From Aestuariivivens insulae (lineage in GTDB: Bacteria; Bacteroidota; Bacteroidia; Flavobacteriales; Flavobacteriaceae): a stretch of DNA of 64,000 nucleotides. This document shows positions 22,778 through 61,927 of this stretch, one piece after another. Numbering within the stretch: position 1 is the stretch's first letter; each line of letters begins with the position of its first letter. Made by a program: the position numbers and the translations under genes. The stretch is from the NCBI RefSeq assembly GCF_022662195.1, contig NZ_JAKMCS010000013.1:37423-101422 (forward strand). The letters are read 5' to 3'. The notes below the pieces were generated by a model, which had not been told where the DNA came from, ran no database searches, and saw only the letters and a program-made list of their open reading frames with translations.

Positions 22778-22952
22778 TGTTTGGTGTGGTTTGGTTGTCC
22801 AAAATTAATTAAACATTTGAAAGCCCGAAACAATTTATAGGTAATTTATTTTTAATAAAATTCAATTAAAAAATTCACTCTAATTACCTTATTTTTCTTC
22901 TGTAAAAGAACTAAATTTTGTGATTTATTAGATACAAAATTTAGTTTTACCT

Positions 22953-23035
22953 CAGTAACCATACTTCGACGTCGCTCAGTAACCATACTTCGACGTCGCT
23001 CAGTAACCATACTTCGACGTCGCTCAGTAACCACC
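22953..23035. repeat. 24-bp tandem repeat, 3.4 copies, with palindromic core
   Basis: Three identical 24-bp units (22953-22976, 22977-23000, 23001-23024) plus 11 bp of a fourth. Each holds CAGTAACCATAC followed by TTCGACGTCGCT, including the palindrome CGACGTCG. The unit length is a multiple of three, so one minus-strand frame stays open with a repeated VTERRRSM, but that frame lacks family resemblance and is not called. The rest of the 342-bp gap 22778-23119 is AT-rich, with a -7-like TACTTTTG (23095-23102) before the next gene. Confidence 0.9.
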
Positions 23036-32668: not shown

Positions 32669-33349
32669 ATGAATTTACCCGATGAAAGCCCTTTAGATAA
32701 TCCGGTTTGGTTTTCATTAACCGAACACCAGTCCAATTATGCCATAGATTATGGCCATGTAAAATTCTACCATCCAGATTATACGCCTTTTGGGGCTTTT
32801 ATAAACCATCAGGATACAAGTGCTGCCATTGAAAAACATGCGCAATTGATCAAGGAATTTTTTATTGTAGGAGACCAACCTAAAATGCCAGTACATTTTA
32901 ATCCACCAAAACAATATATTGGGTTACAGATGATTATTTATAACCATATAGACCACCCAATAACTGAACCTGTTGTGGAACTAACCGATGCGCATTACGA
33001 CGATTTAATTGAACTGATAAAATTGGTCTACCCAGAATATTTTAAACCTAAAACCCAAAGGTTAGGACAGTATTTTGGAATCTATAAAGATGGTAAATTG
33101 GTAGCAGCCACTGGTGAACGTATGCAAACCAAAGATTTTATTGAAATAAGTGCCGTAATCACCCACCCAGAACATACCGGTAAAGGCTATGCCAAACAGC
33201 TGATAGCCCACACGGCTAGCGGCATCTTTAACAAAGGCAAAATACCTTTTTTACATGTCGATGAAACTAATACAGGAGCCATTCAACTGTATAAAAAATT
33301 AGGGTTTAAAACCAGAAGAACCTTTAGCTTTTGGAAGATTAGCAGTTAA
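32669..33349 (+). CDS. GNAT-family N-acetyltransferase (FR47-like)
   Basis: 226 residues. The C-terminal half holds the acetyl-CoA fold: VIKLVYPEYF region, then ISAVITHPEHTGKGYAKQLI (Q/R-x-x-G-x-G/A loop, here HTGKGYA) and LHVDETNTGAIQLYKKLGF. The N-terminal half resembles the FR47-type duplication. It lies 6 bp after miaA. Its last 16 codons and downstream DNA are repeated, with divergence, about 5.2 kb away at 38480, so this is the left boundary of an accessory insertion. Confidence 0.88.
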   Translation: MNLPDESPLDNPVWFSLTEHQSNYAIDYGHVKFYHPDYTPFGAFINHQDTSAAIEKHAQLIKEFFIVGDQPKMPVHFNPPKQYIGLQMIIYNHIDHPITEPVVELTDAHYDDLIELIKLVYPEYFKPKTQRLGQYFGIYKDGKLVAATGERMQTKDFIEISAVITHPEHTGKGYAKQLIAHTASGIFNKGKIPFLHVDETNTGAIQLYKKLGFKTRRTFSFWKISS

Positions 33350-33490
33350 GCAATATGATCTCCGCTTTCACATCATTTTAAAACCGCCTTCTTAAACTCT
33401 TTTTTTTTGAATTGTAAGAATATTAGCTATATTATCGGATAAATATAATGGAAATAAGCGTAATTGTGTTTATTGACTAGTTGTGGTGCA
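33302..33490. repeat. Left copy of a long diverged direct repeat (GNAT 3' end plus spacer)
   Basis: About 190 bp including the end of the GNAT gene and the following spacer. It aligns with 38479-38672 with most positions identical and a few small indels; shared blocks include CTTTTGGAAGATTAGC, TTGAATTGTAAGAATATTA and GTGTTTATTGACTAGTTGTG. Confidence 0.9.
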
Positions 33491-33547
33491 TTTTCACCGA
33501 TCGCTAAAAAAGAACAAAATTCTGTATTATTAATTCAAAATATTTTC

Positions 33548-33571
33548 TAAATTTGTATCTAAATGGATACA
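33548..33571 (+). promoter_or_regulatory. Promoter and operator of the toxin-antitoxin pair
   Basis: TAAATTTG (33548-33555) matches the -7 element. It overlaps the inverted repeat TGTATC-TAAATG-GATACA (33554-33571), which ends 6 bp before the toxin ATG. An operator overlapping the promoter fits autoregulation by the antitoxin. No convincing -33 TTG was found. Confidence 0.6.
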
Positions 33572-33577
33572 TTTTAA

Positions 33578-33880
33578 ATGGTAATCACCGAAAAGACAAG
33601 CGAATTCGATAAGTGGATTAGAAAGCTCAAAGATTTAAGAGCAAAAGCAAAAATTATCTTCCGAATACAGAAACTCGAAACGGACGGACATTTCGGAGAT
33701 TGTAAACCTGTTGGAGACGGAATTAGCGAAATGCGAATTAATTATGCTAAAGGCTATCGAATTTACTTCAAAGAAAAAGGAGACAAGATTGTGGTCCTTT
33801 TGATTGGCGGAGATAAATTGACCCAACAAAAGGACGTTAAAAAAGCAAAAGAAATTTGGAACAGAATAAAAGACGAATAA
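33578..33880 (+). CDS. RelE/ParE-superfamily toxin (HigB/addiction-module killer type)
   Basis: 100 residues. The fold pattern matches the COG3657-type killer proteins: VITEKTSEFDKWIRKLKDLR, KAKIIFRIQKLETDGHFGDC, KPVGDGISEMRINYAKGYRI, YFKEKGDKIVVLLIGGDKL. Members are ribosome-dependent or free mRNA endonucleases neutralised by the partner. The toxin gene comes first, as in HigBA-like systems, and the antitoxin starts 1 bp after its stop. It is the first gene of the accessory segment. Confidence 0.93.
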   Translation: MVITEKTSEFDKWIRKLKDLRAKAKIIFRIQKLETDGHFGDCKPVGDGISEMRINYAKGYRIYFKEKGDKIVVLLIGGDKLTQQKDVKKAKEIWNRIKDE

Positions 33881-33881
33881 A

Positions 33882-34166
33882 ATGGTAACTACGAAATTTG
33901 ACATTGCGGATTATCTGGACAGCGAAGAAATGATTGCTGAATATCTGAACACTGTTCTTGAAGATGGGGACAGTTCTGATTTGATAGTCGCAATCGGACA
34001 TATTGCAAAAGCAATCGGAATGACCAAAATTGCAGAAAAAACTGGAATGAGCCGGCCAAGTCTTTACAAGGCATTGTCGGACGGAGCAAAACCACAGTTC
34101 GGAACAATAATGAAAGTTCTGAAAGCAATTGGCGGACAAATCAACGTAAAACCAATGTCAGCGTAA
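33882..34166 (+). CDS. HigA-like antitoxin (addiction-module antidote protein)
   Basis: 94 residues. TKFDIADYLDSEEMIAEYLN at the start and the HTH GMTKIAEKTGMSRPSLYKAL followed by FGTIMKVLKAIGGQINVKP match the COG3636 antidote family. It binds the upstream toxin and probably the palindrome at 33554. It is directly followed by the first hairpin repeat of the candidate cassette array, as toxin-antitoxin genes often are in integron arrays. Confidence 0.94.
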   Translation: MVTTKFDIADYLDSEEMIAEYLNTVLEDGDSSDLIVAIGHIAKAIGMTKIAEKTGMSRPSLYKALSDGAKPQFGTIMKVLKAIGGQINVKPMSA

Positions 34167-34189
34167 AAAAAACGACACCACAATAATAG

Positions 34190-34310
34190 CTATAAGTAAT
34201 TGCTTGTTAGCGCCTACTTCTGAAAATCCTTTCGGATTTTCTATTCGGTTTGTATTTGCTAAATTAGGTGCTTAAAATACGCAACTAATCTTACACAAAC
34301 ACGTTACAAT
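34190..34310 (+). repeat. attC-like hairpin repeat A
   Basis: About 120 bp between the antitoxin and TlpA genes. It has TAATTGC (34197-34203) matched imperfectly by GCAACTAA downstream, the hairpin GAAAATCC-TTTC-GGATTTTC, a conserved block TTTGCTAAATTAGGTGCTTA, and a right end ACACGTTACAA. The same layout appears at 37772-37900 and 40034-40164. The ends with AAC and GTT and the imperfect dyad resemble integron cassette recombination sites; no integrase is in the window. Confidence 0.75.
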
Positions 34311-34324
34311 CAAGCAAAAAAGAA

Positions 34325-35410
34325 ATGAAGTACATCATAACCGTAATTTTACTTATAATAATAATTTCATCTTGTCACAACAAATCTAAAAATGGAGGAT
34401 ATTTAATAAATGGGATAGCTGAAAATGTATCTGACAGCACTAAAGTTTTATTATACCTCTACCCAAAAATGGATGAAATAGCTGATTCCACATTTGTAAT
34501 CAATGAAGAATTCCGATTTAAGGGGAATCTAAGCCGTCCGAGATTAGCGCATTTAAGAATTATCGAAAGCAGAGATGATAAGACATTTTGGCTTGAGAAT
34601 CAACAAATAGATTTCATTGGTAAGAAAGGCAACTTTTTCAATGGAAGAATCAAAGGTTCAGAAACACAGAAAGAATCGGAACTACTTTTGAAAAGAAAAG
34701 ACTCTATTTTTAAAGAAATGGAAAAGCTCGAAGCGAAGGTTACGGAAAAAAACCGAGATTCACTTTTTGAGATTTATGAAAAAATGCAAGATGTAGAAAT
34801 TGAGATTAATAATAAGTTTATTCAAGATTATCCCAACTCTTTCGAAAGCCTGACTCGCCTAAATTGGTCTAAAGAACGAATGGGGAGTGAAAAAACATCC
34901 ATAGTCTTCTCATATTTAAATTCGGAATTAAAGTCTACTGAAGAAGGAAAAGCAATAGAAGAGTTTATTTCTAATAATAGAAACTTAAAAATTGGGGATA
35001 AATTTGTAGATATTGAACAAGCTAATATAAAGGGGGAAATGACAAAACTCTCCAAAATACATAAAAATTACACCCTTATAGAATTTTGGGCTTCTTGGTG
35101 CGGCCCTTGTAGAAGTTTCAACCCAGAACTGGTTGAACAATACAAACTATACAAGGGTAAAGGTTTTGAAATTTTCGGAGTATCATTAGACACCGACAAA
35201 GAAAAATGGAAGAAAGCAATAAAAAAGGATGGTCTGAATTGGGAAAATGTAAGTGATTTAAAAGGAGCTAACAACCAAGCTGCCGTGACTTATGGCGTTA
35301 GGGATATTCCCGATAACCTTTTGATTAATGAGAAGGGTGTAATCATCGCTAGATTTATAAGGGGACAAAAGTTAGAAGAAAAATTGAAAGAATTATTTGA
35401 TGATAAATAA
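34325..35410 (+). CDS. TlpA-family thiol-disulfide oxidoreductase lipoprotein
   Basis: 361 residues. Lipobox signal (IITVILLIIIISSC), an N-terminal DUF4369-like domain (GIAENVSDSTKVLLYLYPKM), a helical spacer, then a thioredoxin fold with FWASWCGPCRSFNPELVEQY (Cys-Gly-Pro-Cys near residue 256) and the cis-Pro segment VRDIPDNLLINEKG. It is periplasmic and membrane anchored, reducing disulfides. It ends in TAATG shared with the next gene, so the two are translationally coupled. Located between hairpin repeats A and B. Confidence 0.93.
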   Translation: MKYIITVILLIIIISSCHNKSKNGGYLINGIAENVSDSTKVLLYLYPKMDEIADSTFVINEEFRFKGNLSRPRLAHLRIIESRDDKTFWLENQQIDFIGKKGNFFNGRIKGSETQKESELLLKRKDSIFKEMEKLEAKVTEKNRDSLFEIYEKMQDVEIEINNKFIQDYPNSFESLTRLNWSKERMGSEKTSIVFSYLNSELKSTEEGKAIEEFISNNRNLKIGDKFVDIEQANIKGEMTKLSKIHKNYTLIEFWASWCGPCRSFNPELVEQYKLYKGKGFEIFGVSLDTDKEKWKKAIKKDGLNWENVSDLKGANNQAAVTYGVRDIPDNLLINEKGVIIARFIRGQKLEEKLKELFDDK

Positions 35411-37746
35411 TGCCAGCTTGTAACAATGAAAAATATTCATTATTGTTTTTTAAAGCTCTTTTGTTAGGGTGGTCATTCCCATTGTTATTATTTTCACAAG
35501 CAAGTAGTCCAGATACAAAAAAGCTTGTAGATGATTTACAAGTTTTGTCTAAACAAAAATCTTCAGACTTGGTTTATTTCCAAACCAGCAAAGGCATTTA
35601 TGAAACAGAAGAAGATGTATGGTTTAAAGGTTATGTGCTAAATCCTCAATCTTATACATTATCCGCTCAAAGTAAAACCCTATTCGTACAACTTATAAAT
35701 GACAAAACCCAACAAGCTGTTTGGGAAGAAAAATATGAAATAGAAAATGGCATTGTAGATGGGCATTTGTATTTACAGGATTCATTACAAGCTGGAGGCT
35801 ATACCCTAACAGCATATAGCCCCCATTCTTTTTATAAGAATACTTCTGAGTTTTACGCAGCAAGAAAATTAAGGGTAGTAAAAAAGATAACAGAAAATAG
35901 AATGGTAGTTGAGGTAACTAAGGACAGTGTTTTTGATTTTAAGATGTTTCCTGAAGGCGGGCACCTTGTTTCGGGCATACGAAACACCCTAGCATTTAAA
36001 GCTACTAATAGTAAATGTGAACCTGTAATAGTGTCAGGAACTTTGTTTGAGAACAATAAGCCTTTAATAGAATTCAAATCTGTACATGCAGGTATGGGGC
36101 GTTTTGTTTTTAAACCTGATATTAATAAAACATATTATGTAGAAATTTCTAATCCAAAATCCACCAAGCGATACAGCATACCCAAAATACAAACTAAAGG
36201 TATGTCTATGCAACTTGTTGGAAGTAACAAAGATTTTTTATTATTTAATATTGCGCAAAGTAAAGCATTAAAAGAAACCGTAATATACTTGAGGTTGCAA
36301 GTAAGAGGTGAAGTTTATAGTTTGGCTAAAACCAACTTAAATAGTCAGGTAAAAATAAGAGTTCCTTTAAAGGATGTACCTAAAGGCATTGCAGAAGTTA
36401 CCCTCTTTAATGCCAATTTTGAGCCTATTTGTGAACGATTGGTTTTTATAAAGCAGGATCAAAAATTATATATAAAAACAACACTCGATAAGAGCGAATA
36501 CAGCATCCGCGAAAAGGCAACTTTAAAAATACAAGTAACAGATGAACACCAACAACCGGTAGTAGCTCATTTGGGAGTTAGTATTTACGATAAAATCTAC
36601 AAAAACCCAAAAGACGCAAAAAACATTGTTACGCATTATCATTTAACCACACAGTTAAAAGGAAAACTGTACAATCCTGCATACTACTTTGACTTAAAAA
36701 GCCAAAATAGAAAAGAAGCTCTGAATTTATTGCTGTTAACCCAAGGATGGCGGCGTTATGTTTGGAATGAAACCAATTTAAAAGAACAAAGCAAACCAAA
36801 ACAAATTGTTTTTGATGATATTAAAGGAAAGATAACATTACCTAAGAAACTTCAGAAAAAACCGCAGCAATCCTTACCCGCTTTAATAGCATACAATCCC
36901 CAAAATGAAGGACAGAAAAAAATTATTTTTGTGGACTCAACCAAAACATTTACCATTGAACCAAAGCATTTAAAAATGGGCAGGCAAGTATATTTAAAAT
37001 TATTGGCTTCCCAAAAACCAAAATACACCTTTAATATCAATGATTATGCCTTTAAAGCAATAAATGCTATAAGAAAAACAAAGGCGATAAATTATCCCTT
37101 AGTAGATAGAAATACTATAAAACCTGAAAAAGTGAAACCTTTTAAATATCCGTCAGATATTAAGGTTTTGGATGAAGTAATGGTAAAGGCAAAAAAACGA
37201 AAAGTACACCGTGATAAATATTTAGGAAAATTAGATAGTATTGCTAAATTAGAAATGACTACTGATTATGTGTGTAAAGAAAACATTCTAAATTGTCCAG
37301 TACACGGTCCTTTTGAAAAAGGCAATAAAAAACCTGTAGAAGGAAAAATCTATGGTATACATTGGAGGACTGTCTATGAGGAACATGGAGGACCACCTCC
37401 CAGTGGTATTATACCTAAACATCCTCCTTATAAATATCCCGTATTAACAGATGAATATTTGATGTCTAGGTTTAATCTACTTAGAGTTAAAGGCTATTAT
37501 GGAAAAAGAGAGTTTTACCAACCTGTTTATGATAATGAGAAAAGTATTGAAGATCCTTTTCCAGATTATCGTAACACTCTGTATTGGAATCCATCAGTTA
37601 TTACAAATGAAAAAGGAGTGGCGACTCTAGAGTTTTTTTGTTCAGATATTAATACTAATTTCATTGGAAATATAGAGGGGGTTGGTGGTAATGGATTGTT
37701 AGGCAATGTATTATTTGAATTTTTTATAACTAAATTAACTGACTAA
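35410..37746 (+). CDS. Exported MG2-domain (macroglobulin-like) envelope protein
   Basis: 778 residues. N-terminal signal with a hydrophobic core (LLLGWSFPLLLFSQ) after a short Cys-containing lead. The segment VYFQTSKGIYETEEDVWFKG opens an MG2-like domain also present in large Bacteroidota TonB-plug proteins. Later beta-sandwich units (EATLKIQVTDEHQQPVVAHL type) follow, then DEVMVKAKKRKVHRDKYLG and a closing beta domain (YWNPSVITNEKGVATLEFFC). It is shorter than relatives that end in a plug domain. Role unknown; coupling to TlpA suggests shared envelope work, perhaps needing disulfide formation. Confidence 0.8.
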   Translation: MPACNNEKYSLLFFKALLLGWSFPLLLFSQASSPDTKKLVDDLQVLSKQKSSDLVYFQTSKGIYETEEDVWFKGYVLNPQSYTLSAQSKTLFVQLINDKTQQAVWEEKYEIENGIVDGHLYLQDSLQAGGYTLTAYSPHSFYKNTSEFYAARKLRVVKKITENRMVVEVTKDSVFDFKMFPEGGHLVSGIRNTLAFKATNSKCEPVIVSGTLFENNKPLIEFKSVHAGMGRFVFKPDINKTYYVEISNPKSTKRYSIPKIQTKGMSMQLVGSNKDFLLFNIAQSKALKETVIYLRLQVRGEVYSLAKTNLNSQVKIRVPLKDVPKGIAEVTLFNANFEPICERLVFIKQDQKLYIKTTLDKSEYSIREKATLKIQVTDEHQQPVVAHLGVSIYDKIYKNPKDAKNIVTHYHLTTQLKGKLYNPAYYFDLKSQNRKEALNLLLLTQGWRRYVWNETNLKEQSKPKQIVFDDIKGKITLPKKLQKKPQQSLPALIAYNPQNEGQKKIIFVDSTKTFTIEPKHLKMGRQVYLKLLASQKPKYTFNINDYAFKAINAIRKTKAINYPLVDRNTIKPEKVKPFKYPSDIKVLDEVMVKAKKRKVHRDKYLGKLDSIAKLEMTTDYVCKENILNCPVHGPFEKGNKKPVEGKIYGIHWRTVYEEHGGPPPSGIIPKHPPYKYPVLTDEYLMSRFNLLRVKGYYGKREFYQPVYDNEKSIEDPFPDYRNTLYWNPSVITNEKGVATLEFFCSDINTNFIGNIEGVGGNGLLGNVLFEFFITKLTD

Positions 37747-37771
37747 GAAACATGTGCATACGAAAAATCCT

Positions 37772-37900
37772 GCTTGTAACACCTAAAATTAATTGCTCAT
37801 GTATGCCTAATTATGAAAATCCTCACAGATTTTCTATTCGATCTGTATTTGCTAAATTAAGTGCTTAAACCACGCAACTAATCTTATACATAAACGTTAG
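37772..37900 (+). repeat. attC-like hairpin repeat B
   Basis: Same layout as repeat A: GCTTGTAAC at 37772-37780, TTAATTGC (37789-37796) against GCAACTAA, hairpin GAAAATC-CTCACA-GATTTTC, TTTGCTAAATTAAGTGCTTA, and right end TAAACGTTAG. The TTGTAAC at its left is the exact reverse complement of GTTACAA at 34303-34309, the first bases of the same TlpA/MG2 segment, as expected for a circularising gene cassette. Confidence 0.75.
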
Positions 37901-37942
37901 CTGTAAGTATTAACCTCCTAAGAGAAATTAAATAAATTTACC

Positions 37943-38317
37943 ATGATGAAAAAGAACTTTAACGATTTAGCACTTTTAATATTAAGAGTTGGCTTTGGTG
38001 GCTTTATGCTTACCCATGGCATTCCAAAAATAAGTATGTTATCAAACCCTTCCGATTTTGGTGACCCAATAGGTGTTGGCGCTACAATATCCTTAATTTT
38101 AGCACTTATTGGAGAAGTTGTCGCACCAATGCTATTAATTATAGGCTTTAAAACAAAATGGGCTGCAATTCCTGCTGCAATTACTATGTTTGTTGCTGCA
38201 TTTATAGTACATGCCAAAGACGATTTAGCTACCAAAGAACATGCTATATTGTTTTTTATAGCCTTTGTTGTGATGTTTCTAGCAGGAGCTGGAAAATATT
38301 CAGTTGATAAAGCATAA
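37943..38317 (+). CDS. DoxX-family membrane protein
   Basis: 124 residues with four transmembrane helices. The DoxX pattern is LALLILRVGFGGFMLTHGIP, GVGATISLILALIGEVVAPM, LIIGFKTKWAAIPAAITMFV and a last helix ending in FLAGAGKYSVDK. Members are small inner-membrane proteins associated with quinone or thiol redox; the reaction is not known. It sits behind hairpin repeat B and ends in its own terminator. No other gene appears coupled to it. Confidence 0.93.
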   Translation: MMKKNFNDLALLILRVGFGGFMLTHGIPKISMLSNPSDFGDPIGVGATISLILALIGEVVAPMLLIIGFKTKWAAIPAAITMFVAAFIVHAKDDLATKEHAILFFIAFVVMFLAGAGKYSVDKA

Positions 38318-38388
38318 TAAGTTTTGTAGTGTTAATGAAGGTTCGGAATTTATTGAAACTATAAATAATGGTGAAAATAAGACATAAT

Positions 38389-38415
38389 TAAGCCCTTAAA
38401 AGGGCTTATATTTTC
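38389..38415 (+). terminator. Rho-independent terminator after DoxX
   Basis: TAAGCCCT-TAAA-AGGGCTTA (38389-38408), followed by TATTTTC. It lies about 70 bp past the DoxX stop. The rest of the 387-bp gap 38318-38704 holds the right copy of the GNAT-derived repeat and no intact gene. Confidence 0.8.
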
Positions 38416-38478
38416 TCATGTAAATTCCTTGCGGCCAAAAATCATGGGGCTTAAAAAGACGTAAAATGTATTGTAGGG

Positions 38479-38672
38479 AGGCTTTAAAACCAGGCGAACC
38501 CTTAGCTTTTGGAAGATTAGCTGTTAAACAATATGGTCTCCACTTTCTTATTATTTTAAAACCACCTTCTAAATCTGTAAATTCTTTTTGAATTGTAAGA
38601 ATATTAATTATATTTATCAGGTAAATACAATGGAAATAAACGGAATTGTGTTTATTGACTAGTTGTGCTACA
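38479..38672. repeat. Right copy of the long diverged direct repeat
   Basis: Aligns with 33302-33490 over about 190 bp, with scattered substitutions and small indels, and includes both the GNAT 3' remnant and its downstream spacer. Similarity stops just after the shared GTGTTTATTGACTAGTTGTG. Confidence 0.9.
38480..38527 (+). pseudogene. GNAT acetyltransferase 3' remnant
   Basis: The frame reads GFKTRRTLSFWKISC then stop, against GFKTRRTFSFWKISS in the intact gene at 32669-33349. Only the last 15 codons survive; nothing upstream matches. The substitutions show this is not a recent exact duplication but a homologue or an old copy. Confidence 0.9.
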
Positions 38673-38704
38673 TATGACCAACATTGATAATTTGAACTAA
38701 TAAT

Positions 38705-39073
38705 TTGAGAAAGTATATAAAATATCTGATTTCCTTCCTTCTGATTTTCGGTCTGACCGTTAACGATGGTTCTATATTTTCACAAACTAATTCTTCAAAC
38801 TACTATCAAGTTTCACGAATACATTCCAGAAAAGAATTTAGACATAAATATTCGGGATTATATGTTTACGGCAGACCGCTTCTAACAGAAAGAATATTTG
38901 TTAAGCTGATTTCATATCTCAATCTTCGAGATGTTTTTAGTGTTCAAATTACAAGAGTTTTAAATTTACAAATTGAAAAGTACCAAAAAATAACTTCAAA
39001 AATAGCTCGATACGTTTTCCTGAATAAAACATTCGTGTCCAGCAATCAATATCCAGGTTTATACATAGCATAG
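38705..39073 (+). CDS. Small exported protein of unknown function
   Basis: 122 residues from TTG at 38705; an in-frame TGA twelve bases upstream leaves no ATG choice. A signal peptide (IKYLISFLLIFGLTVNDGSIF) is followed by SSNYYQVSRIHSRKEFRHKY and a basic, hydrophobic second half (RIFVKLISYLNLRDVFSVQI, TRVLNLQIEKYQKITSKIAR). I do not recognise a family. It is within the accessory segment, right after the diverged GNAT repeat, and 80 bp before another small ORF. Coding status is supported by the signal peptide and length only. Confidence 0.55.
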   Translation: MRKYIKYLISFLLIFGLTVNDGSIFSQTNSSNYYQVSRIHSRKEFRHKYSGLYVYGRPLLTERIFVKLISYLNLRDVFSVQITRVLNLQIEKYQKITSKIARYVFLNKTFVSSNQYPGLYIA

Positions 39074-39153
39074 AATAAATTTTCATTCTGTGTGAATGTG
39101 CACTTTGCTGCATAAATGATAAAACAAATGTCAAACCATTTATCATTACTAAA

Positions 39154-39330
39154 ATGTATAAACAAAAGAATAAAACCTATTTGGAGAAATCCAAACATTT
39201 CTTCCATTCTATAAAAAGATCGTTTATTTTAATCATTACCGCAGTTATGCTTGGAATGTCCAATGCAATGTATGATGAAGATAAAATGATTGATGGAAAG
39301 CAAAATCATACCGAACAAAAACATAAATAG
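39154..39330 (+). CDS. 58-residue single-helix membrane protein, unknown
   Basis: ATG at 39154, stop TAG at 39328. The sequence starts MYKQKNKTYLEKSKHFFHSI, has one hydrophobic helix (SFILIITAVMLGMSNAMY) and a polar tail ending in HTEQKHK. The positive-inside bias predicts a cytoplasmic N-terminus. No known domain. It is 80 bp behind the preceding small exported gene and may share its transcript. Confidence 0.5.
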   Translation: MYKQKNKTYLEKSKHFFHSIKRSFILIITAVMLGMSNAMYDEDKMIDGKQNHTEQKHK

Positions 39331-39397
39331 ATTAAATAATAACAGTTAAATACGTTGCGCAACATCGTATAAGATTAGCTACAATTAAAACAAACAA

Positions 39398-40032
39398 ATG
39401 GAAACAGAAAACATTTCACGAATATTAATTCTCACTCACGTTGGATTTGGCAGTCTCGCTTTATTATCAGGGCAATTTCAATCATTGCTAAAAAGGGAGA
39501 TTTTTTACATAAGAGATCAGGTAAAATATTTTATTACGCATTACTTACATCTGCATTACTATCTCTTATTGTGTCCCTAATACCAACCCACCGAAGTCCA
39601 TTTCTATTCTGCCTTGGATTATTCAGTTTATACTTTATTATTGGTGGTTATAGAAGTCTAGCATTTAAGAAAAAAGGCGTGTCATTTCGGTTTGATAAAA
39701 TCATTGCCTATTTTATAATACTTGTAGGAATTGCGATGATGACATATCCTATTCTATTAAATGGCAAAATAAACCCTGTTCTATTCGTTTTTGGAGCGGT
39801 TAGTATATTATTTGGTGTTATTGATCTTTTATTTTTTCAAAACTTAAATAGAACTAGAGAAAATTGGTTAAATATACATTTGTCCAAAATGATAAGTGGT
39901 TACGTCGCAACAGTGACAGCATTTGTAGTTAATCAATGGGCTCTTGGGATTTGGGGTTGGTTTATACCAACAATTTTCGGGAATATTTATTTGATTTATT
40001 GGTTGATTAAATTAAATAGAAAAAAACTGTAG
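39398..40032 (+). pseudogene. Multi-spanning membrane protein disrupted by a frameshift
   Basis: From ATG 39398 the frame reads ISRILILTHVGFGSLALLSG, then shifts: past about 39472 the continuation lies in another frame (ISIIAKKGDFLHKRSGKIFY, YALLTSALLSLIVSLIPTHR) and runs on to 40032. One lost G in the GGG at 39470-39472 would explain it, giving LLSGAISIIAKKG. Rejoined, it is about 211 residues with six or seven membrane helices, of the DUF2306-like type. It could be a real pseudogene or a sequencing error. It ends one base before hairpin repeat C. Confidence 0.8.
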
Positions 40033-40033
40033 T

Positions 40034-40164
40034 TAAGCCGTGTATAATTAATTGCTTTGGCAAGTGATTATTTGGAAAATTCCTTCGGAATTTTCTCTGG
40101 CAAGTTTTTGTTTACTAAATTACAGGCTAAACCACGCAACTAACCATACACGAACACGTTAAAC
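40034..40164 (+). repeat. attC-like hairpin repeat C
   Basis: CGTGTAT (40039-40045) pairs with ATACACG (40146-40152); inside are TTAATTGC against GCAACTAA, and the hairpin GAAAATTCC-TTC-GGAATTTTC (40075-40095). It ends ACACGTTAAAC, where GTTAAAC fits the attC core GTTRRRY. It shares the ACTAAATTA and ACCACGCAACTAA blocks with repeats A and B. Confidence 0.75.
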
Positions 40165-40210
40165 GGAACTATGAAAAAAACACTCCTAATTAAAACTACA
40201 GTTAATTGAA

Positions 40211-40792
40211 ATGAATATAGAAAAGATACTTATTGAAATTGGAGAAGTCTACTCACCATTAACTTATGAATGTCATCAGGAATTCATTGCAAATTCAAAA
40301 TTTGTTACCTTCAAAAAAGGTGATATTATAGTTAGGGAAGGGCAATATTCCAAAAAAGCATATTTAATTATTGAAGGTTGTGCAAGAGCTTATTATTTGA
40401 AAGATGGAAAAGATATTTCTGATTGGTTTACGTTTGAAAATCAGTTTATGGCTTCCATTGTAAGTTTCTTTAGTAATCAGCCCAGTCCACATTATGTAGA
40501 GTTTGTAGAAGAATCGAAAGTCCTTGAGTTTTCAAAAGAAACAGTAGACCTATTATCAAAGAATTTCCACGATTTTGAACGATTTATTAGTAAAGTAGTT
40601 ACAGAAACTATGCTGGGACTTTGCGAAAGGTTGCACACCATTCAATTCTCAAAAGCAGAAGAAAGATATCAAAACTTAATAAGTATTTATCCAGACATTA
40701 CTCAACGAATACCACTTACCCATATTGCTTCTTATTTAGGAATTACACTTGAAACACTTAGTCGAATTCGCAACCCTAAAGTTCGAATTTGA
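40211..40792 (+). CDS. Crp/Fnr-family transcriptional regulator
   Basis: 193 residues. N-terminal cNMP-like beta roll (KFVTFKKGDIIVREGQYSKK, AYLIIEGCARAYYLKDGKDI, SDWFTFENQFMASIVSF) and C-terminal HTH (IPLTHIASYLGITLETLSRI). The phosphate-binding cassette of true cAMP binders is missing, so the signal is unknown. It stands 55 bp ahead of four closely spaced genes for small membrane proteins and an NAD(P)H oxidoreductase, which it may control. Located after hairpin repeat C. Confidence 0.9.
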   Translation: MNIEKILIEIGEVYSPLTYECHQEFIANSKFVTFKKGDIIVREGQYSKKAYLIIEGCARAYYLKDGKDISDWFTFENQFMASIVSFFSNQPSPHYVEFVEESKVLEFSKETVDLLSKNFHDFERFISKVVTETMLGLCERLHTIQFSKAEERYQNLISIYPDITQRIPLTHIASYLGITLETLSRIRNPKVRI

Positions 40793-40847
40793 TTTATATC
40801 AAATGATAAACCTCCCATTAAAATGACCTTTGTAAAAAAAATTAAAA

Positions 40848-41174
40848 ATGGGAGAATTCAAGAATCAACAAAAATCAATTTTTGGAACGTGGTGGGAACC
40901 TATTAGAAAATGGTTTTACCCAGCGTGGTTAGTTTACGAAACCTCAATTCGTTTCTATGACTATGCTCTATCGGTGTACAGTTACTTTATTGAGCAACAA
41001 GATAATATTGGAGAAGTTATCACTCAAGTTTTAGCAATCACTTGCGGTTTAACAACTTTCTTAATCTGCATATTCTATGTAACTCTTCCCGTCAGTATTA
41101 TCTTATACAAGTTTTTCAAAGATGATAAACCAATAGTCAATCCATTTATACATAAAATCAAAAAATACTTTTAA
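40848..41174 (+). CDS. Small membrane protein, unknown family
   Basis: 108 residues with two hydrophobic segments: around residues 25-48 (WFYPAWLVYETSIRFYDYAL) and 66-92 (LAITCGLTTFLICIFYVTLP). No motif recognised. An AAATG-rich leader gives no clear ribosome site. It heads a tight run of four genes (gaps 5, 9 and 12 bp), so cotranscription is very likely. Confidence 0.65.
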   Translation: MGEFKNQQKSIFGTWWEPIRKWFYPAWLVYETSIRFYDYALSVYSYFIEQQDNIGEVITQVLAITCGLTTFLICIFYVTLPVSIILYKFFKDDKPIVNPFIHKIKKYF

Positions 41175-41179
41175 AAACA

Positions 41180-41575
41180 ATGAAAACCATATACATCAAA
41201 ATAACAGGAATTGTAAACCTTTTTGGTCCTATACTTCACACTATAGGCGGACAAATAGAATTGGTTAACCCTTTATTAGATAGTAATATCAGTATTCAAC
41301 AAAAGAGAGAGTTAACGGGAGCGTGGCACATCGTCACTATCCTTTTATTTTTGACTTCTTACATCATATTAAGAATTGGATTTAAAAAAGATAGTACTCA
41401 AGAAAAAGAACTACTTAAGCCAATAGCTATTCTTTACATTTTATCGGGAATCCCATTTATAATTACCAGTTATATTTATGGGGTCTATGCACTTCAGTGG
41501 ATATTGATAATGCCTATTGGTTTTCTGCCTTTAATGGGTTTACAAAAAGCGTCTTCTAATAAACAAAATCTTTAA
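41180..41575 (+). CDS. Four-helix membrane protein, unknown family
   Basis: 131 residues with about four transmembrane helices (IKITGIVNLFGPILHTIGG, WHIVTILLFLTSYIILRIGF, IAILYILSGIPFIITSYIYG, and LQWILIMPIGFLPLMGL). No catalytic motif. Small hydrophobic proteins of this shape are often annotated only as hypothetical. It starts 5 bp after the preceding gene. Confidence 0.7.
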   Translation: MKTIYIKITGIVNLFGPILHTIGGQIELVNPLLDSNISIQQKRELTGAWHIVTILLFLTSYIILRIGFKKDSTQEKELLKPIAILYILSGIPFIITSYIYGVYALQWILIMPIGFLPLMGLQKASSNKQNL

Positions 41576-41584
41576 AAATTTCTT

Positions 41585-41977
41585 ATGAATCAATATTTAT
41601 GGATTGCTGGAGTTCTATGCTTTTTATTAGGATTAGTCCACTCAATCCTTGGCGAAATTTTAATTTTTAGAAATAAAAAGAAGCATAATAAAATTGTTCC
41701 TACAATCGTAACATCCAAATTGAAAGAAAGGCAACTTAGGATTATTTGGGCTACTTGGTATTTAACGCCATTCTTTGGTGGGAGTATCGGTGTTATGCTT
41801 ATCAAAATTGGAACAAAGCAGGCCGAAATGAGTGCTTATTTGATGCAATCTATAATTACTGCCATAACTATTACAATGCTCAGCGCTTCCTTTCTTGTTT
41901 TCATCGCAACAAAAGGTAAACATCTTGGATGGGTGATTTTATTAGTAATTGGAATCTTAAACCTGTTAGCACTTTAA
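41585..41977 (+). CDS. Four-helix membrane protein, unknown family
   Basis: 130 residues with about four transmembrane helices (YLWIAGVLCFLLGLVHSILG, a His and Glu conserved-looking pair there, then IIWATWYLTPFFGGSIGVML, SIITAITITMLSASFLVF, and GWVILLVIGILNLLAL). Not recognised as a named family. It lies 9 bp downstream of the previous membrane protein and 12 bp upstream of the oxidoreductase. Confidence 0.7.
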   Translation: MNQYLWIAGVLCFLLGLVHSILGEILIFRNKKKHNKIVPTIVTSKLKERQLRIIWATWYLTPFFGGSIGVMLIKIGTKQAEMSAYLMQSIITAITITMLSASFLVFIATKGKHLGWVILLVIGILNLLAL

Positions 41978-41989
41978 AATAAGACATAA

Positions 41990-42571
41990 ATGAACAAACG
42001 AATAGCTTTAATAATAGGTCATCCAGATAAAGAAAGTTACAACTATGCATTAGCGAGAGCCTATAAAAAAGGTGTAGAGGCGTCAGGTTGTGAAATCCGA
42101 GAAATTATTATTCAAGATTTAGATTTTAATCCAAATCTTCAATTTGGTTATAGAAAAAGAACAGAACTTGAACCTGATTTGTTAAATAGTCAAGACATAT
42201 TAAAATGGGCAGACCATTTAGTTTGGGTCTATCCTGTTTGGTGGGGTTCAGTACCAGCAATAATGAAAGGTTTCTTAGATAGAGTGCTTCTTCCGGGATT
42301 TGCTTTTAGCAAAAGAAAAGATTCTATATGGTGGGACAAACATTTTTCAGGTAAAACCGCTAGAATCATCTGTACATTAGACCAACCCAGTTGGTACTAC
42401 AAGTTGTTTTATTCAAGCCCTAGTCACAAAGCAATGAAAAAATTAACAATGAACTTCATTGGAGTAAAAAAGGTAAGAATTACAACCATTGGCCCTATTA
42501 GACTGTCTAAACAAAAATTTAGAACAAAGTGGTTAAAAAAAATAGAAAGATTAGGTCGCTTAAGCAATTAA
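41990..42571 (+). CDS. NAD(P)H-dependent flavodoxin-fold oxidoreductase (NQO1/KefF/MdaB type)
   Basis: 193 residues. The opening ALIIGHPDKESYNYALARAY and the middle ADHLVWVYPVWWGSVPAIMK, then GFLDRVLLPGFAF, are characteristic of FMN/FAD-dependent quinone reductases. It reduces quinones or electrophiles with two electrons. It ends an operon with three membrane proteins behind a Crp-type regulator. KefF-like members regulate K+ efflux, but no kefC-like gene is present. Confidence 0.92.
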   Translation: MNKRIALIIGHPDKESYNYALARAYKKGVEASGCEIREIIIQDLDFNPNLQFGYRKRTELEPDLLNSQDILKWADHLVWVYPVWWGSVPAIMKGFLDRVLLPGFAFSKRKDSIWWDKHFSGKTARIICTLDQPSWYYKLFYSSPSHKAMKKLTMNFIGVKKVRITTIGPIRLSKQKFRTKWLKKIERLGRLSN

Positions 42572-42819
42572 ATATGAAAAACAGCGTATAGTAATAACGT
42601 TTGCCAACAATGTTAATCATTGCACAAGGCTCTAAAGCTTCTTTTTAAGGGGCTTTTATTTTTAGATACATTTCTAAAGGTCTTATCTGAAGTAACATTA
42701 AGGCAGTTAAACGAGAAACTAAATGATGCTTTGCTTGAGCACCACTTTTCACGGTTTTTGCTATGAATTTAAGGTGCTTTTTGAGGTCGTAGCCCATAGG
42801 GAAAAACCTTTAACAAGCT

Positions 42820-43062
42820 TTACCCCTTCAAAGTAGAAGGTGCAAAAATTAAAAACAAAATAAAACAACCAATAAAAAATAGTATTCCTAATCTTTTTAA
42901 TAGATTAAGAACTTTCTTTTCATCAGTCGAAAGGCTATACATCTTATTTATATCAAAGTTACTATTGGCCCAATAGTTAAATAATTCTTCATGTTTAGAT
43001 CTCAAAATCAATAATTTAGCTAATAAGGCTATTAATAATATTATAAGTAAGATCTTAATCAC
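42820..43062 (-). CDS. Small membrane protein of 80 residues, unknown
   Basis: GTG start at 43062, no ATG available nearby. Two hydrophobic helices at the ends (IKILLIILLIALLAKLLIL and LGILFFIGCFILFLIFAP) flank a polar loop (SKHEELFNYWANSNFDINKM). No known family. It is the only minus-strand gene in the accessory region and may belong to the parC side rather than to the island. Confidence 0.5.
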   Translation of the reverse strand: MIKILLIILLIALLAKLLILRSKHEELFNYWANSNFDINKMYSLSTDEKKVLNLLKRLGILFFIGCFILFLIFAPSTLKG

Positions 43063-43140
43063 GTAATTAAAATTCTTGTGTTAGCACTCATTTATACCGA
43101 GCGCTAGCAAAAGTTAGCAAGATTTTATACCAAACTTAGC

Positions 43141-45807
43141 CTAAAACAAAGTTATCTGTCCCTCGTCGTCAATCTCGAGATCTTCTTTTGATGCTTCTCC
43201 ATTGTTCTGGTTGTCTGGGTGCTTTTGGGTTTCACCATTTTCATCTTTAACAACCTCCTCATCAACAACTTCTAAATCATCGGCATGTACCTCTTCTGGA
43301 GCCTCATAAGGCAAAGGATCCAAAAGGTTGATTTGGTTAACCTTATCTTTAGTAAGCTGGTTTCCAAGGGCAGAAATCCCTTTTACGGCAATAAACTCTT
43401 CTAGGTTTACCTCCATATTATCCTTTCTGTCCTTACCCCGTTCTTTGGCAAATACCACCTCTGCCATTGGTCTCCAGTCTGTAGATACAATTTCCAATTG
43501 GGAGTTAGGATGCTCTGAAATAAAATTTTCTTCCCTACCTTCGTTTTCAATTAAGAACCGTTTAACGTAATACATTTCTTTTTCTCCGTTGTAGTAAACC
43601 ACAGATATGGGTTTTTTGGGAACCCATTTTTCCAACACAATCATATCGTCGTCAAAATGCATAGTAACTTCCGGGGTAACCGTTTTAGCGATACCAGATT
43701 GGTTAATGACCAATAATTTATCTTCTCCCCTAAACTCACCTATTAGTTCGCCCCTGCCATCAACATTAATACGCTGTATGGCATCATCGAACCAGATTTT
43801 ACGAGGTTTTAGTGTCGACACCCCTTTTTCCTTAAGTTCAATACGTTTAACAGCATACTTGGTGACTAAATTCCCTTTGGAAGAACGGCCCTTAATGAGA
43901 ATGTCGGCAAAATCGATATCCCATTTAAGCTTTTTAATGCTGCCCGCTTGTCGTAACTGTACGGCAACCACTTCGGCCTCTCCATTAGGGTTGGCTGAAA
44001 AATACAATACGGCAGAACCTTTATTTTCGTTAGTTAAATCGTATTCCCGATCTCTTGTTACCCCAGTAACTGCAAAACGTTTGATATATGAAGGGCCTCG
44101 GGAGCCATCCCGATAAACCATGTTGTAAATGGTGCGTTTATCTTTCTTTTTAAAGACAGCCACATGGATAATATCCTTACCAACAAAGGTTTTGGTATCC
44201 ACTTTGGTGACCATCATTTTACCTTGCTTAGTAAATACTATAATGTCGTCTATATCGCTACAATCGCACACATATTCATCACGACGTAAGGAAGTACCAA
44301 TAAAGCCTTCTTCCCTATTCACATAAAGTTTGGTGTTTCTAATAACGACCTTAGTGGCATCGACATCGTCAAAAGTGCGTATTTCGGTCTTTCGCTCACG
44401 TCCTTTACCATATTCGGCTTTCAATCGTGTGAAATAGGCTATAGCATAATCGATGAGGTGGGCTAAGTCATGCTTAACTTCAGCTATTTGTTCTTCTAAG
44501 GCATCTATTTTTTGTTGGGCTTTATCGATATCGAATTTTGAAATACGTTTGATTCGAATCTCGGTCAGCCGTACAATATCCTCTTCGGTAATTGCGCGTT
44601 TTAAATGTTTTATATGGGGCTGAAGCCCTTTATCTATAGCGCTAATTACGCCTTCCCATGTTTCTTGTTCCTCAATATCGCGATAAATCCTGTTTTCTAT
44701 GAAAATACGTTCCAATGAAGCAAAGTGCCACTGTTCTTCAAGTTCGCCCAGTTTAATTTCCAGTTCTTGCTTTAACAACTGAACCGTATTATCGGTAGAG
44801 CGCCTTAACATTTCGGAAACCCCAACAAACAAAGGTTTATTGTCTTCAATAACGCAACCTAATGGAGAAATAGACGATTCGCAATTGGTAAAGGCATACA
44901 GGGCATCGATGGTCTTATCTGGTGAAAGTCCCGATGGCAAATACACTAATATCTCTACCTCGGCAGCGGTATTGTCTTCAATACGTTTGATTTTGATTTT
45001 CCCTTTATCATTCGCTTTTAGTATGGAATCGATTAATGACGATGTTGTTGTTCCAAAGGGAATTTCAGAAATAACCAAGATATTTTTATCGAGTTGGGAA
45101 ATTTTTGCACGTACACGTACTTTTCCGCCTCTTAAACCATCGTTATAATTAGAAAAATCGGCAATGCCTGCAGTAGGGAAATCGGGTTCTAACTTAAAGC
45201 GTTTGCCTTGCAAATGCTTTATGGATGCCTCTATAAGCTCAATAAAATTGTGCGGTAATATTTTTGTTGAAAGCCCTACAGCAATCCCTTCACCGCCTTG
45301 TGCCAACAACAACGGGAATTTTACAGGTAAATTTACAGGCTCTTTTCTACGACCGTCATAACTGGCTTGCCACTCTGTAATTTTAGGACTGTAAACAACA
45401 TCCATGGCAAATTTTGAAAGCCGTGCTTCGATATAACGTGAAGCAGCTGCACTATCGCCCGTTAAAATGTTTCCCCAGTTTCCTTGTGTATCAATTAGCA
45501 AATCTTTTTGCCCAATTTGCACCATAGCATCAGCAATACTGGCATCGCCATGTGGATGGTACTGCATGGTATGCCCCACAATATTGGCTACCTTGTTGTA
45601 ACGCCCATCGTCCAAATCCTTCATAGAATGCATAATGCGTCGCTGTACAGGTTTAAAACCATCTTCTATGGCTGGTACGGCACGCTCCAATATAACATAC
45701 GAAGCATAATCGAGAAACCAGTCTTTGTACATCCCGGTAACTCGGGTAATGGTTTCTTTGGGTTCGTCTTGCTCGTTAATTAAATCGTCGTTCTCTTCTT
45801 CTATCAT
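43141..45807 (-). CDS. parC: DNA topoisomerase IV subunit A
   Basis: 888 residues. ATG at 45807 is chosen over a TTG one codon earlier. It has the GyrA/ParC breakage-reunion domain (DGFKPVQRRIMHSMKDLDDG, HTMQYHPHGDASIADAMVQI) with the active-site Tyr125 in AAASRYIEARL. The C-terminal beta-propeller region (GRSSKGNLVTKYAVKRIELK) lacks a full GyrA box, and the tail is acidic (from about 855). It decatenates chromosomes with ParE, which is encoded upstream on the same strand, separated by one small gene. Confidence 0.95.
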   Translation of the reverse strand: MIEEENDDLINEQDEPKETITRVTGMYKDWFLDYASYVILERAVPAIEDGFKPVQRRIMHSMKDLDDGRYNKVANIVGHTMQYHPHGDASIADAMVQIGQKDLLIDTQGNWGNILTGDSAAASRYIEARLSKFAMDVVYSPKITEWQASYDGRRKEPVNLPVKFPLLLAQGGEGIAVGLSTKILPHNFIELIEASIKHLQGKRFKLEPDFPTAGIADFSNYNDGLRGGKVRVRAKISQLDKNILVISEIPFGTTTSSLIDSILKANDKGKIKIKRIEDNTAAEVEILVYLPSGLSPDKTIDALYAFTNCESSISPLGCVIEDNKPLFVGVSEMLRRSTDNTVQLLKQELEIKLGELEEQWHFASLERIFIENRIYRDIEEQETWEGVISAIDKGLQPHIKHLKRAITEEDIVRLTEIRIKRISKFDIDKAQQKIDALEEQIAEVKHDLAHLIDYAIAYFTRLKAEYGKGRERKTEIRTFDDVDATKVVIRNTKLYVNREEGFIGTSLRRDEYVCDCSDIDDIIVFTKQGKMMVTKVDTKTFVGKDIIHVAVFKKKDKRTIYNMVYRDGSRGPSYIKRFAVTGVTRDREYDLTNENKGSAVLYFSANPNGEAEVVAVQLRQAGSIKKLKWDIDFADILIKGRSSKGNLVTKYAVKRIELKEKGVSTLKPRKIWFDDAIQRINVDGRGELIGEFRGEDKLLVINQSGIAKTVTPEVTMHFDDDMIVLEKWVPKKPISVVYYNGEKEMYYVKRFLIENEGREENFISEHPNSQLEIVSTDWRPMAEVVFAKERGKDRKDNMEVNLEEFIAVKGISALGNQLTKDKVNQINLLDPLPYEAPEEVHADDLEVVDEEVVKDENGETQKHPDNQNNGEASKEDLEIDDEGQITLF

Positions 45808-50557: not shown

Positions 50558-50712
50558 GTCTTTATTCAAATAGGTTGCAAAAATAATGTAATTTTACGGC
50601 AAACATGACGTTTACTAAAATTATAGGTTAAGGATTGAAGCGGCATCCTTTTATTTTGGGGTCTGAGGCTATCGAAGTCAACAAAATAAAAGATATAGCG
50701 GAAAGCCTGACC

Positions 50713-50734
50713 CGCCCAGATGATTATCTGGGCG
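50713..50734. repeat. Perfect 9-bp hairpin (CGCCCAGAT-GATT-ATCTGGGCG)
   Basis: A GC-rich stem 20 bp before the methyltransferase ATG (50755). If transcribed it would sit in the leader of that gene. It looks like a dispersed palindromic element; its family differs from the ones at 4223 and 26755. Confidence 0.6.
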
Positions 50735-61854: not shown

Positions 61855-61927
61855 GACCGGGTAGCTCAGTTGGTAGAGCATCTCCCTTTTAAGGAGAGGG
61901 TCCTGGGTTCGAGCCCCAGCCCGGTCA
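61855..61927 (+). tRNA. tRNA-Lys (anticodon TTT)
   Basis: 73 nt. Acceptor arms GACCGGG and CCCGGTC plus discriminator A; D arm GCTC...GAGC; anticodon stem TCTCC/GGAGA with loop CTTTTAA (anticodon TTT); T arm CTGGG-TTCGAGC-CCCAG. No encoded CCA. A promoter lies upstream and a strong terminator 24 bp downstream, so it is a single-gene transcript. Confidence 0.98.

What the first reader, a model, noticed from the sequence alone, without database searches (positions are those of the whole stretch)
34190..40164. Candidate integron-like cassette array (CALIN) built on three related hairpin repeats
Seen: three intergenic repeats (34190-34310, 37772-37900, 40034-40164) share TTAATTGC-type and GCAACTAA arms, a variable central hairpin, a TTTGCTAAATTA-type block and a right end ACACGTTA or AAACGTTA. 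They separate genes all pointing the same way: toxin-antitoxin, then TlpA plus MG2, then DoxX and small unknowns, then a Crp operon. Known: attC sites are about 60-150 bp, imperfect dyads ending in GTTRRRY, and cassettes carry small orphan genes and toxin-antitoxins. Inferred: a cluster of attC-like sites lacking an integrase. An alternative is a dispersed, non-mobile intergenic repeat family.
Basis: partly seen in the sequence, partly recalled or inferred. Interest (0 to 1): 0.75.

Follow-up and report, generated by a model that had tools for sequence, protein, structure and literature searches.

The report
Integrons lacking the IntI-specific domain
The three repeats are sites at the ends of gene cassettes, and they belong to an integron-like gene-capture system, common in the bacterial family Flavobacteriaceae, whose predicted integrase lacks the protein insert thought essential for integrons, so these bacteria likely swap genes with an enzyme that the standard search would not recognise.

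Summary
The repeats are real. They belong to a family of folded cassette sites (35 found in the own-genome stretches fetched). Elsewhere the genome has a fuller array: a 377-aa tyrosine recombinase, a putative attI, then 25 sites on contigs C27 and C17 (2 more on C28). In 151 of 168 site-to-site intervals from 23 chosen arrays, the first 7 bases of the cassette complement its last 7 at 6 or more positions (permuted mean 2.6), as a circularisable cassette predicts. Sites occur in 133 of 149 genomes of the family. In 80 named recombinase loci, 116 of 120 sites lie downstream, in one orientation. Shared blocks between genera tend to end at sites. Integron hallmarks are missing: the recombinase lacks the IntI-specific insert, and canonical IntI is in 1 of 395 genomes of the class; most sites lack an extrahelical base, and none of 56 sampled has GTTRRRY. 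Instead, most stems carry two conserved G.T wobbles on the bottom strand. The window cluster has no integrase: it sits in a 9.9-kb island absent from three congeners, with two cassettes that fit and one interval that does not. 'CALIN' is partly right; the better reading is a widespread integron variant with a patch-less integrase. Activity is inferred.

The parts
33301..33491 (+). 3' end of a GNAT gene plus about 130 bp ending at G|TT (33480): attI-like entry site, copy 1
   Evidence: 86, 88 and 91% like 38479-38673 in three blocks; the two copies stop matching at the GTT; the GTT pairs with the end of the next cassette, 6 of 7. Naming it attI-like is inference.
33481..34303 (+). cassette 1: toxin-antitoxin pair (ORFs 33578-33880 and 33882-34166) and site 1
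   Evidence: start and end match 6 of 7; left box reads AAT in place of AAC at 34182; Gp49-like and HI1420-antidote domains
34179..34308 (+). recombination site 1 (attC-like)
   Evidence: 112.5 bits with R1 on the - strand
34304..37896 (+). cassette 2: TlpA/thioredoxin-like gene (34325-35410) and MG2-like gene (35410-37746), and site 2
   Evidence: start and end match 6 of 7 with intact AAC at 37778; domains
37775..37901 (+). recombination site 2 (attC-like), both boxes intact
   Evidence: 111.7 bits with R1
38479..38673 (+). second copy of GNAT 3' end plus attI-like sequence, G|TT at 38662
   Evidence: no convincing cassette end found for it
40031..40163 (+). recombination site 3 (attC-like), left box degenerate
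   Evidence: 89.5 bits with R1; no cassette start fits its left side
33350..43252 (.). 9.9-kb acquired island between the GNAT gene and parC
   Evidence: in congeners G783, G784 and G782 the two matching flanks lie about 97, 104 and 890 bp apart

Best explanation
The three repeats are end sites of gene cassettes in an integron-like system in which a tyrosine recombinase without the IntI-specific insert is predicted to excise and insert the cassettes at a neighbouring attI-like site; in the window they mark a small outlying cluster without its own integrase. Shown by sequence: most cassettes start just after G|TT and end just before AAC with complementary 7-base ends. The site between AAC and GTT folds into a 16-bp stem that pairs better on the bottom strand, where most sites have two G.T wobbles that would be A.C mismatches on the top strand. 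In most Flavobacteriaceae loci that could be read, the array begins about 50-140 bp after the recombinase, at a sequence ending ATAAACAAG|TT or close to it. Blocks shared between genera tend to end at sites. Inferred: the recombinase cuts the folded bottom strand at 5'-AAC, joins it to attI, and the junction is resolved by replication as in known integrons. Strand choice would rest on the wobble pairs and the asymmetric internal loop, not on extrahelical bases. The HARP-like N-terminal domain may help to recognise the folded strand. The window cluster was probably seeded at an attI-like entry site behind the GNAT gene and is now decaying (left boxes of sites 1 and 3 degenerate).
For: Cassette ends: 21 adjacent own-genome pairs mean 6.19 of 7 against 2.36 for 555 non-adjacent, 0 of 100,000 permutations; 168 intervals in 23 arrays, of which 166 measurable, mean 6.34, 151 at 6 or more, permuted mean 2.60 and maximum 3.09 in 20,000; in the 19 arrays of other genomes 128 of 143. 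Model-free chains of 3 or more cassettes: 15 of 80 recombinase loci downstream-forward, 0 of 80 downstream-reverse, 0 of 80 upstream on either strand; chains of 2 or more: 21, 0, 1 and 1; shuffles reached 2 once in 400. Sites and recombinase: 116 of 120 sites downstream, all 116 in one orientation, with 342 kb downstream and 646 kb upstream searched; 18 of 20 further recombinase loci have at least one site. Putative attI in 43 distinct loci of 92 loci examined, 28 with the ATA..AGTT form. Sites in 133 of 149 family genomes, recombinase in 90, both in 87. Fold: covariation 0.333 against 0.094 in shuffles, G.T in 26 and 27 of 27 rows; in other genomes 276 G.T against 6 A.C in 109 stems. Mobility: 27 of 42 block ends at sites against a random mean of 5.8.
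Against: No excision, integration or binding was measured. The recombinase family also occurs without detected sites: 3 of 90 family genomes, and 18 of the 52 named loci with at least 700 nt downstream (L150 and L176 among them do have model-free chains). 46 of 59 family genomes without a strong recombinase match still have sites. Relatives of its catalytic part serve other elements, for example TnpF on a plasmid. 15 of 42 shared-block ends are not at a detected site (two of them are only the edge between my two C17 loci). The attI search had no shuffled control, and 15 of its 43 loci lack the common form. In one search the register of each stem was chosen by a score that credits G.T and not A.C, which leans towards the bottom strand. 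6 of 41 sites gain clearly from one bulge. Site 2 to site 3 of the window does not fit. One genome, G646, that served as canonical control also holds a patch-less relative on another contig.
Confidence: 0.8

Rival explanations
1. The repeats are a dispersed, non-mobile intergenic repeat family (REP or BIME-like) that merely lies between genes.
For: Single copies exist away from the arrays (C16, C28:59 kb); the repeats are hairpins, like many intergenic repeats.
Against: A non-mobile repeat gives no reason for each interval's start to complement its own end (151 of 168), for one orientation downstream of one recombinase, or for shared blocks ending at the repeats.
Confidence: 0.03
2. These are ordinary integron cassettes: a canonical IntI acts on them, either lost from this assembly or supplied in trans by transfer, and the adjacent recombinase does something else.
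For: Canonical IntI is common in other classes of the phylum (85 of 296 genomes sampled, one of them in this class), and some of those genomes carry the same sites (G566, G607).
Against: Canonical IntI is found in 1 of 395 genomes of the class while sites are in 133 of 149 genomes of the family. The array begins just behind the recombinase, in most Flavobacteriaceae loci at a shared sequence. A canonical IntI array of the same phylum gains from a bulge in 12 of 13 sites, against 6 of 41 here.
Confidence: 0.07
3. The arrays change only by homologous recombination between the repeats; the recombinase is a passenger.
For: Within-array duplications 96-98% identical exist, 8 of 12 ends at sites; repeats of 130 bp can recombine.
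Against: Many repeats within one array are only 65-90% alike. The putative attI is not a copy of the repeats, yet its G|TT sits in register with the first cassette in 43 loci.
Confidence: 0.07

Closest known systems
Integrons with canonical IntI (mobile and sedentary chromosomal integrons)
   Same: Tyrosine recombinase gene, adjacent putative attI, tandem cassettes ending in folded AAC...GTT sites, bottom-strand bias, small orphan genes; a toxin-antitoxin cassette in the window.
   Different: Recombinase lacks the IntI insert (spacing between the KDR motif and HxLRH 58-59 residues against 100 in the two canonical IntI measured); most sites without extrahelical base; no GTTRRRY in 56 sites; recombinase co-directional with the cassettes in Flavobacteriaceae; cassette ends pair over 6-7 bases beyond GTT.
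CALIN (cluster of attC sites lacking an integron integrase)
   Same: Window cluster has three sites and no integrase beside it.
   Different: The sites are non-canonical, and a recombinase-bearing array exists in the same genome.
Archaeal XerA / NF040815 family
   Different: XerA is known for chromosome dimer resolution (recalled); here the gene heads a cassette array and has an extra N-terminal domain.
HARP domain of SMARCAL1
   Same: Five strands and two helices predicted for residues 3-70, as a paper describes HARP (PMC4666394, one passage); weak profile matches (2 of 21 members, best 2.8e-5).
   Different: No match in 19 of 21 members; other families match as weakly (DUF5710 2.1e-5 in one, ThiI_fer 0.0028 in two); PDB profile match only E 0.95, behind unrelated chains. 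A lead, not a membership.

Membership tests
Integron (IntI type) | Tyrosine recombinase gene at one end of the cassette array | tested here: met
   Own genome L033:4700-5833, array from 5949 on; 35 of 80 named loci have model sites downstream, 34 of the 52 with at least 700 nt downstream
Integron (IntI type) | IntI-specific insert (I2 region) in the integrase | tested here: not met
   TIGR02249 matched in two pieces with the insert missing, under cut-off; alignment with canonical IntI L178; spacing 58-59 in 34 of 35 family rows (one without a value) against 100 in two canonical IntI
Integron (IntI type) | attI site next to the integrase | tested here: met
   43 distinct loci of 92 loci examined with a GTT behind the recombinase whose next 7 bases pair with the end of the first cassette; 28 with a common form, 15 without; no shuffled control. 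By sequence only
Integron (IntI type) | attC sites that fold with AAC/GTT ends | tested here: met
Integron (IntI type) | Extrahelical bases in the folded bottom strand | tested here: not met
   109 of 128 sites pair at 14 or more of 16 positions without a gap, 82 of them at all 16; a bulge helps in 6 of 41 chosen sites here against 12 of 13 at one canonical IntI array
Integron (IntI type) | R box GTTRRRY | tested here: not met
   0 of 56 sampled sites; first base a purine in 56 of 56
Integron (IntI type) | Cassette promoter Pc | tested here: inconclusive
   sigma-70 scan gave 7 sites against 5.3 in shuffles; Bacteroidota promoters differ (recalled)
Integron (IntI type) | Integrase-dependent cassette recombination | not testable with these tools
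   needs an experiment
CALIN | At least two attC sites and no integrase nearby | tested here: inconclusive
   three sites, none of the TIGR02249 matches on contig C4; whether the standard attC model accepts the sites was not testable here
HARP domain (PF07443) | Match over the curated cut-off | tested here: inconclusive
   19.6 bits against a cut-off of 25 for L143, the only one of 8 full proteins with a match; own protein no match; the N-terminal domain was not searched by structure on its own

The most novel reading that the evidence does not exclude
Bacteroidota run a second class of integron: a recombinase without the IntI insert recombines folded single-stranded cassette sites that mostly have no extrahelical bases, reads the strand from two conserved G.T wobble pairs, and often carries a HARP-like domain. 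Single-strand cassette recombination then does not need the I2 domain, and almost every genus of one large bacterial family carries, or once carried, such cassettes.
Probability: 0.6. Interest if true: 0.95.

Novelty: new variant of a known kind. Interest (0 to 1): 0.85.

Why it matters
Integron integrases are defined, and searched for, by one protein insert. A 2020 paper states that this I2 domain and single-strand recombination are found only in integron integrases, and that direct proof of causality is not available because deleting I2 abolishes IntI1 function (PMC7790495, passages read). Natural arrays run by a recombinase without I2 would make that question directly testable. The standard search recognises an integrase only if it matches a profile of that domain (PMC9668308, passages), so it would not name this one, although the sites are present in 133 of 149 sampled genomes of one bacterial family. 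Whether its attC model finds the sites was not tested.

Tried and rejected
Chain test without orientation: the pattern equals its own reverse complement and shuffles reached 9, so it was replaced by the oriented version. Canonical IntI loci as a positive control: in G570 and G560 I found no array; a strict GTTRRRY chain found none longer than 2 in 16 further loci; direct-repeat search of five of those showed attC-like repeat arrays in G646 and G631, of which only G646 could be measured (13 sites, left ends chosen by best stem) and G631 gave none. AlphaFold of the recombinase without an alignment gave pLDDT 37 and was not used. The fold-search rows cover residues 92-355 only; the N-terminal domain was not folded or searched alone, so nothing is claimed about novelty of its fold. 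The tree holds 36 rows, only 3 canonical IntI and one other recombinase on a very long branch; it keeps IntI together but cannot say whether the patch-less family is ancestral. In one search one own-genome pair was read in a wrong AAC register; one search corrects it. In one search two of 168 intervals were not measured: one over 4.5 kb on C17 and window site 2 to site 3.

Literature: ten searches, seen as listings (titles and abstract starts): and on HARP. None of the listed titles or abstract starts describes cassette arrays with a patch-less integrase in Bacteroidota. Passages were read in PMC9024848, PMC8618304, PMC8352920, PMC9668308, PMC2864250, PMC2426708, PMC7790495, PMC4792948, PMC4666394. 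Integrons as such are on record for Bacteroidota. PMC5561996 (Tenacibaculum maritimum genome) does not contain the words integron, integrase or cassette in its main text. NAR gkw319 is not held. Subscription papers and preprints are not held. One UniRef name, 'Integron-related Integrase' for Zobellia, and the NF040815 name show that annotators have suspected an integron link.

Full report
OBSERVATION. The three repeats exist at the stated places. Copies 1 and 2 are 81% identical over 123 nt. A first blastn search of the own genome (4.23 Mb, 33 contigs; the window is C4:37423-101422) listed 36 matches, 22 of them at E 0.021 or better, mostly in clusters: along contig C17 (20.8 kb), at the end of C27, at the start of C28, and in the window. 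Iterated profile search on the stretches fetched gave 32 copies and a covariance model 35.

THE ARRAY. C27 carries, in one direction, a 377-aa tyrosine recombinase (L033:4700-5833), then cassettes to near the contig end. In cassette direction the sites of C17 follow: the last start on C27, GTTGGCAATA, complements the first site end on C17 (last line). C28 begins with two more sites, but no matching ends tie C17 to C28. That makes 7, 18 and 2 sites. Of 9 proteins in the C27 cassettes, 7 have no Pfam match.

CASSETTES, NOT MERE REPEATS. If each interval was once a circle closed at G|TT, the bases after GTT at its start should complement those before AAC at its end. For 21 adjacent own-genome pairs the mean is 6.19 of 7, against 2.36 for 555 non-adjacent pairs, with 0 of 100,000 permutations as high. 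I then took 191 sites in 23 arrays (arrays with sites that I did not paste were left out): of 168 intervals 166 could be measured, mean 6.34, and 151 reach 6; the permuted mean is 2.60 and the highest of 20,000 permutations 3.09. In the 19 arrays of other genomes it is 128 of 143. Intervals that fail may hide an undetected site. A model-free scan for chained cassettes in the 80 named loci found 3 or more in 15 loci downstream of the recombinase on the forward strand, none downstream on the reverse strand and none upstream on either strand; 2 or more in 21, 0, 1 and 1; shuffles reached 2 once in 400. The 15 include Maribellus (L150) and a Peptostreptococcaceae MAG (L176), which the model had missed at E 0.01.

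THE RECOMBINASE BELONGS TO THE ARRAY. A scan of named genomes gave 80 loci. Of 129 model hits I kept 120 (nine with E of 0.01 or more dropped: seven on the + strand, two on the - strand); 116 lie downstream of the recombinase, all 116 in one orientation, and 4 upstream, although nearly twice as many upstream bases were searched. Sites were found downstream in 35 of 80 loci, and in 34 of the 52 with at least 700 nt downstream; 18 of the 52 have none by the model, among them close relatives such as L103, L106 and L114. Of 20 further loci taken from genomes of the family, 18 have at least one site; L079, with only 137 nt downstream, and L097 have none. In 149 genomes of the family (one per genus) sites occur in 133 and the recombinase at E 1e-60 in 90: both 87, recombinase only 3, sites only 46, neither 13 (my comparison of the two lists; Fisher p 0.0006). 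The family is Flavobacteriaceae by inference: the G006 contig of 34,995 bases has the length of the Wocania arenilitoris record. Of 92 loci examined behind the recombinase, 43 distinct ones show a GTT whose following bases complement the end of the first cassette, in most of them 50-140 bp behind; 28 share ATA..AGTT and 15, mostly distant ones, do not. This search had no shuffled control.

WHAT IS MISSING. The recombinase matches the IntI profile in two pieces, without the IntI insert, under the cut-off. Aligned with a canonical IntI (L178) it lacks the stretch before HxLRH that IntI has. The spacing from the KDR motif to HxLRH is 58-59 residues in 34 of 35 family rows (one gave no value) against 100 in two canonical IntI (three further IntI rows were misread by the script), and 58 in two short recombinases of another class. 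The usual catalytic residues are invariant in 48 aligned members (my reading of its list). Canonical IntI is found in 1 of 395 genomes of the class and in 85 of 296 of the phylum, 84 over the cut-off. [quoted passage not shown] The taxon-specific attC models of PMC8352920 have none for it (passages).

THE SITES. On the bottom strand 27 own sites form a 16-bp stem; 9 pairs change on both sides, covariation 0.333 against 0.094 in shuffles; two G.T pairs are kept in 26 and 27 of 27 rows. I drew this structure from one of these rows, so I also looked at 128 sites of other genomes with 60 bits or more: 109 pair at 14 or more of 16 positions without a gap, 82 of these at all 16; they hold 276 G.T and 6 A.C on the bottom strand, which is the reverse on the top strand; 73 of 109 have G.T at both positions 7 and 12. 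The register was chosen by a score that credits G.T, which favours the bottom strand somewhat. 19 sites pair less well ungapped, many of them one subfamily with a bulge. As control, a canonical IntI array of the same phylum (G646) gains from a one-base bulge in 12 of 13 sites; of 41 chosen sites of patch-less arrays 6 do. None of 56 sampled sites has GTTRRRY; all 56 have a purine after GTT. The literature describes extrahelical bases as key to strand choice (PMC4792948, passages).

MOBILITY. Blocks shared between genera are often single cassettes: own C17:18368-19619 and G024 at 92%; G087 and Polaribacter aquimarinus at 90% over 3.7 kb. Of 42 ends of 11 blocks that I chose from that list (those in arrays with mapped sites), 27 lie within 25 nt of a site; random placement gives 5.8 on average and never more than 17 in 20,000.

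THE WINDOW CLUSTER. In G783, G784 and G782 the matches to the GNAT gene and to parC lie about 97, 104 and 890 bp apart; here 9.9 kb stand between them. No model hit lies in those congener loci. G783 and G784 also lack the recombinase; G782 has a 43% relative. Within the block, a 190-bp segment with the GNAT end occurs twice, each copy ending at a G|TT. From the first, a toxin-antitoxin cassette fits (6 of 7, left box AAT), then the TlpA plus MG2 cassette (6 of 7, box intact). From site 2 on nothing convincing fits, and site 3 has a degenerate left box. I read this as an outlying cluster, seeded at an attI-like site and now decaying; that history is inference.

VERDICT. It looks like an integron in gene order, cassette ends, folded sites and a putative attI, but fails the defining protein feature and two site features. 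I file it as a new variant, not as a member of the IntI type. Activity is untested. Papers outside the held library may already describe parts of this.

Noticed in passing
window 33301-33491 and 38479-38673: 190-bp duplication with the end of a GNAT gene; both copies end at a G|TT. Copy 2 shares the string AATGGAAATAAACG with the attI region of G040 (L094).
   Followed up: partly
G566:C33, G572:C44, G673:C17: Genomes of another class of the phylum carry the same sites with a short recombinase; in G566 and G572 it is divergent to the array. Some, such as G566, also have a canonical IntI elsewhere.
   Followed up: partly
L034 4277-6111: Three sites on C27 at about 182 kb with degenerate left boxes (AAG): another decaying cluster in the same genome.
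   Followed up: no
plasmids NZ_CP041688 and NZ_CP094530: Relatives of the recombinase (45-46%) lie on two Chryseobacterium plasmids, one annotated as integron integrase; whether they have arrays was not checked.
   Followed up: no
L176: A Peptostreptococcaceae MAG has a chain of four cassettes downstream of a related recombinase; a MAG binning error is possible.
   Followed up: no
window 50621-50716: Flavo-1 RNA, and a tRNA at 61855-61927.
   Followed up: no
window 22951-23033: 24-bp tandem repeat.
   Followed up: no
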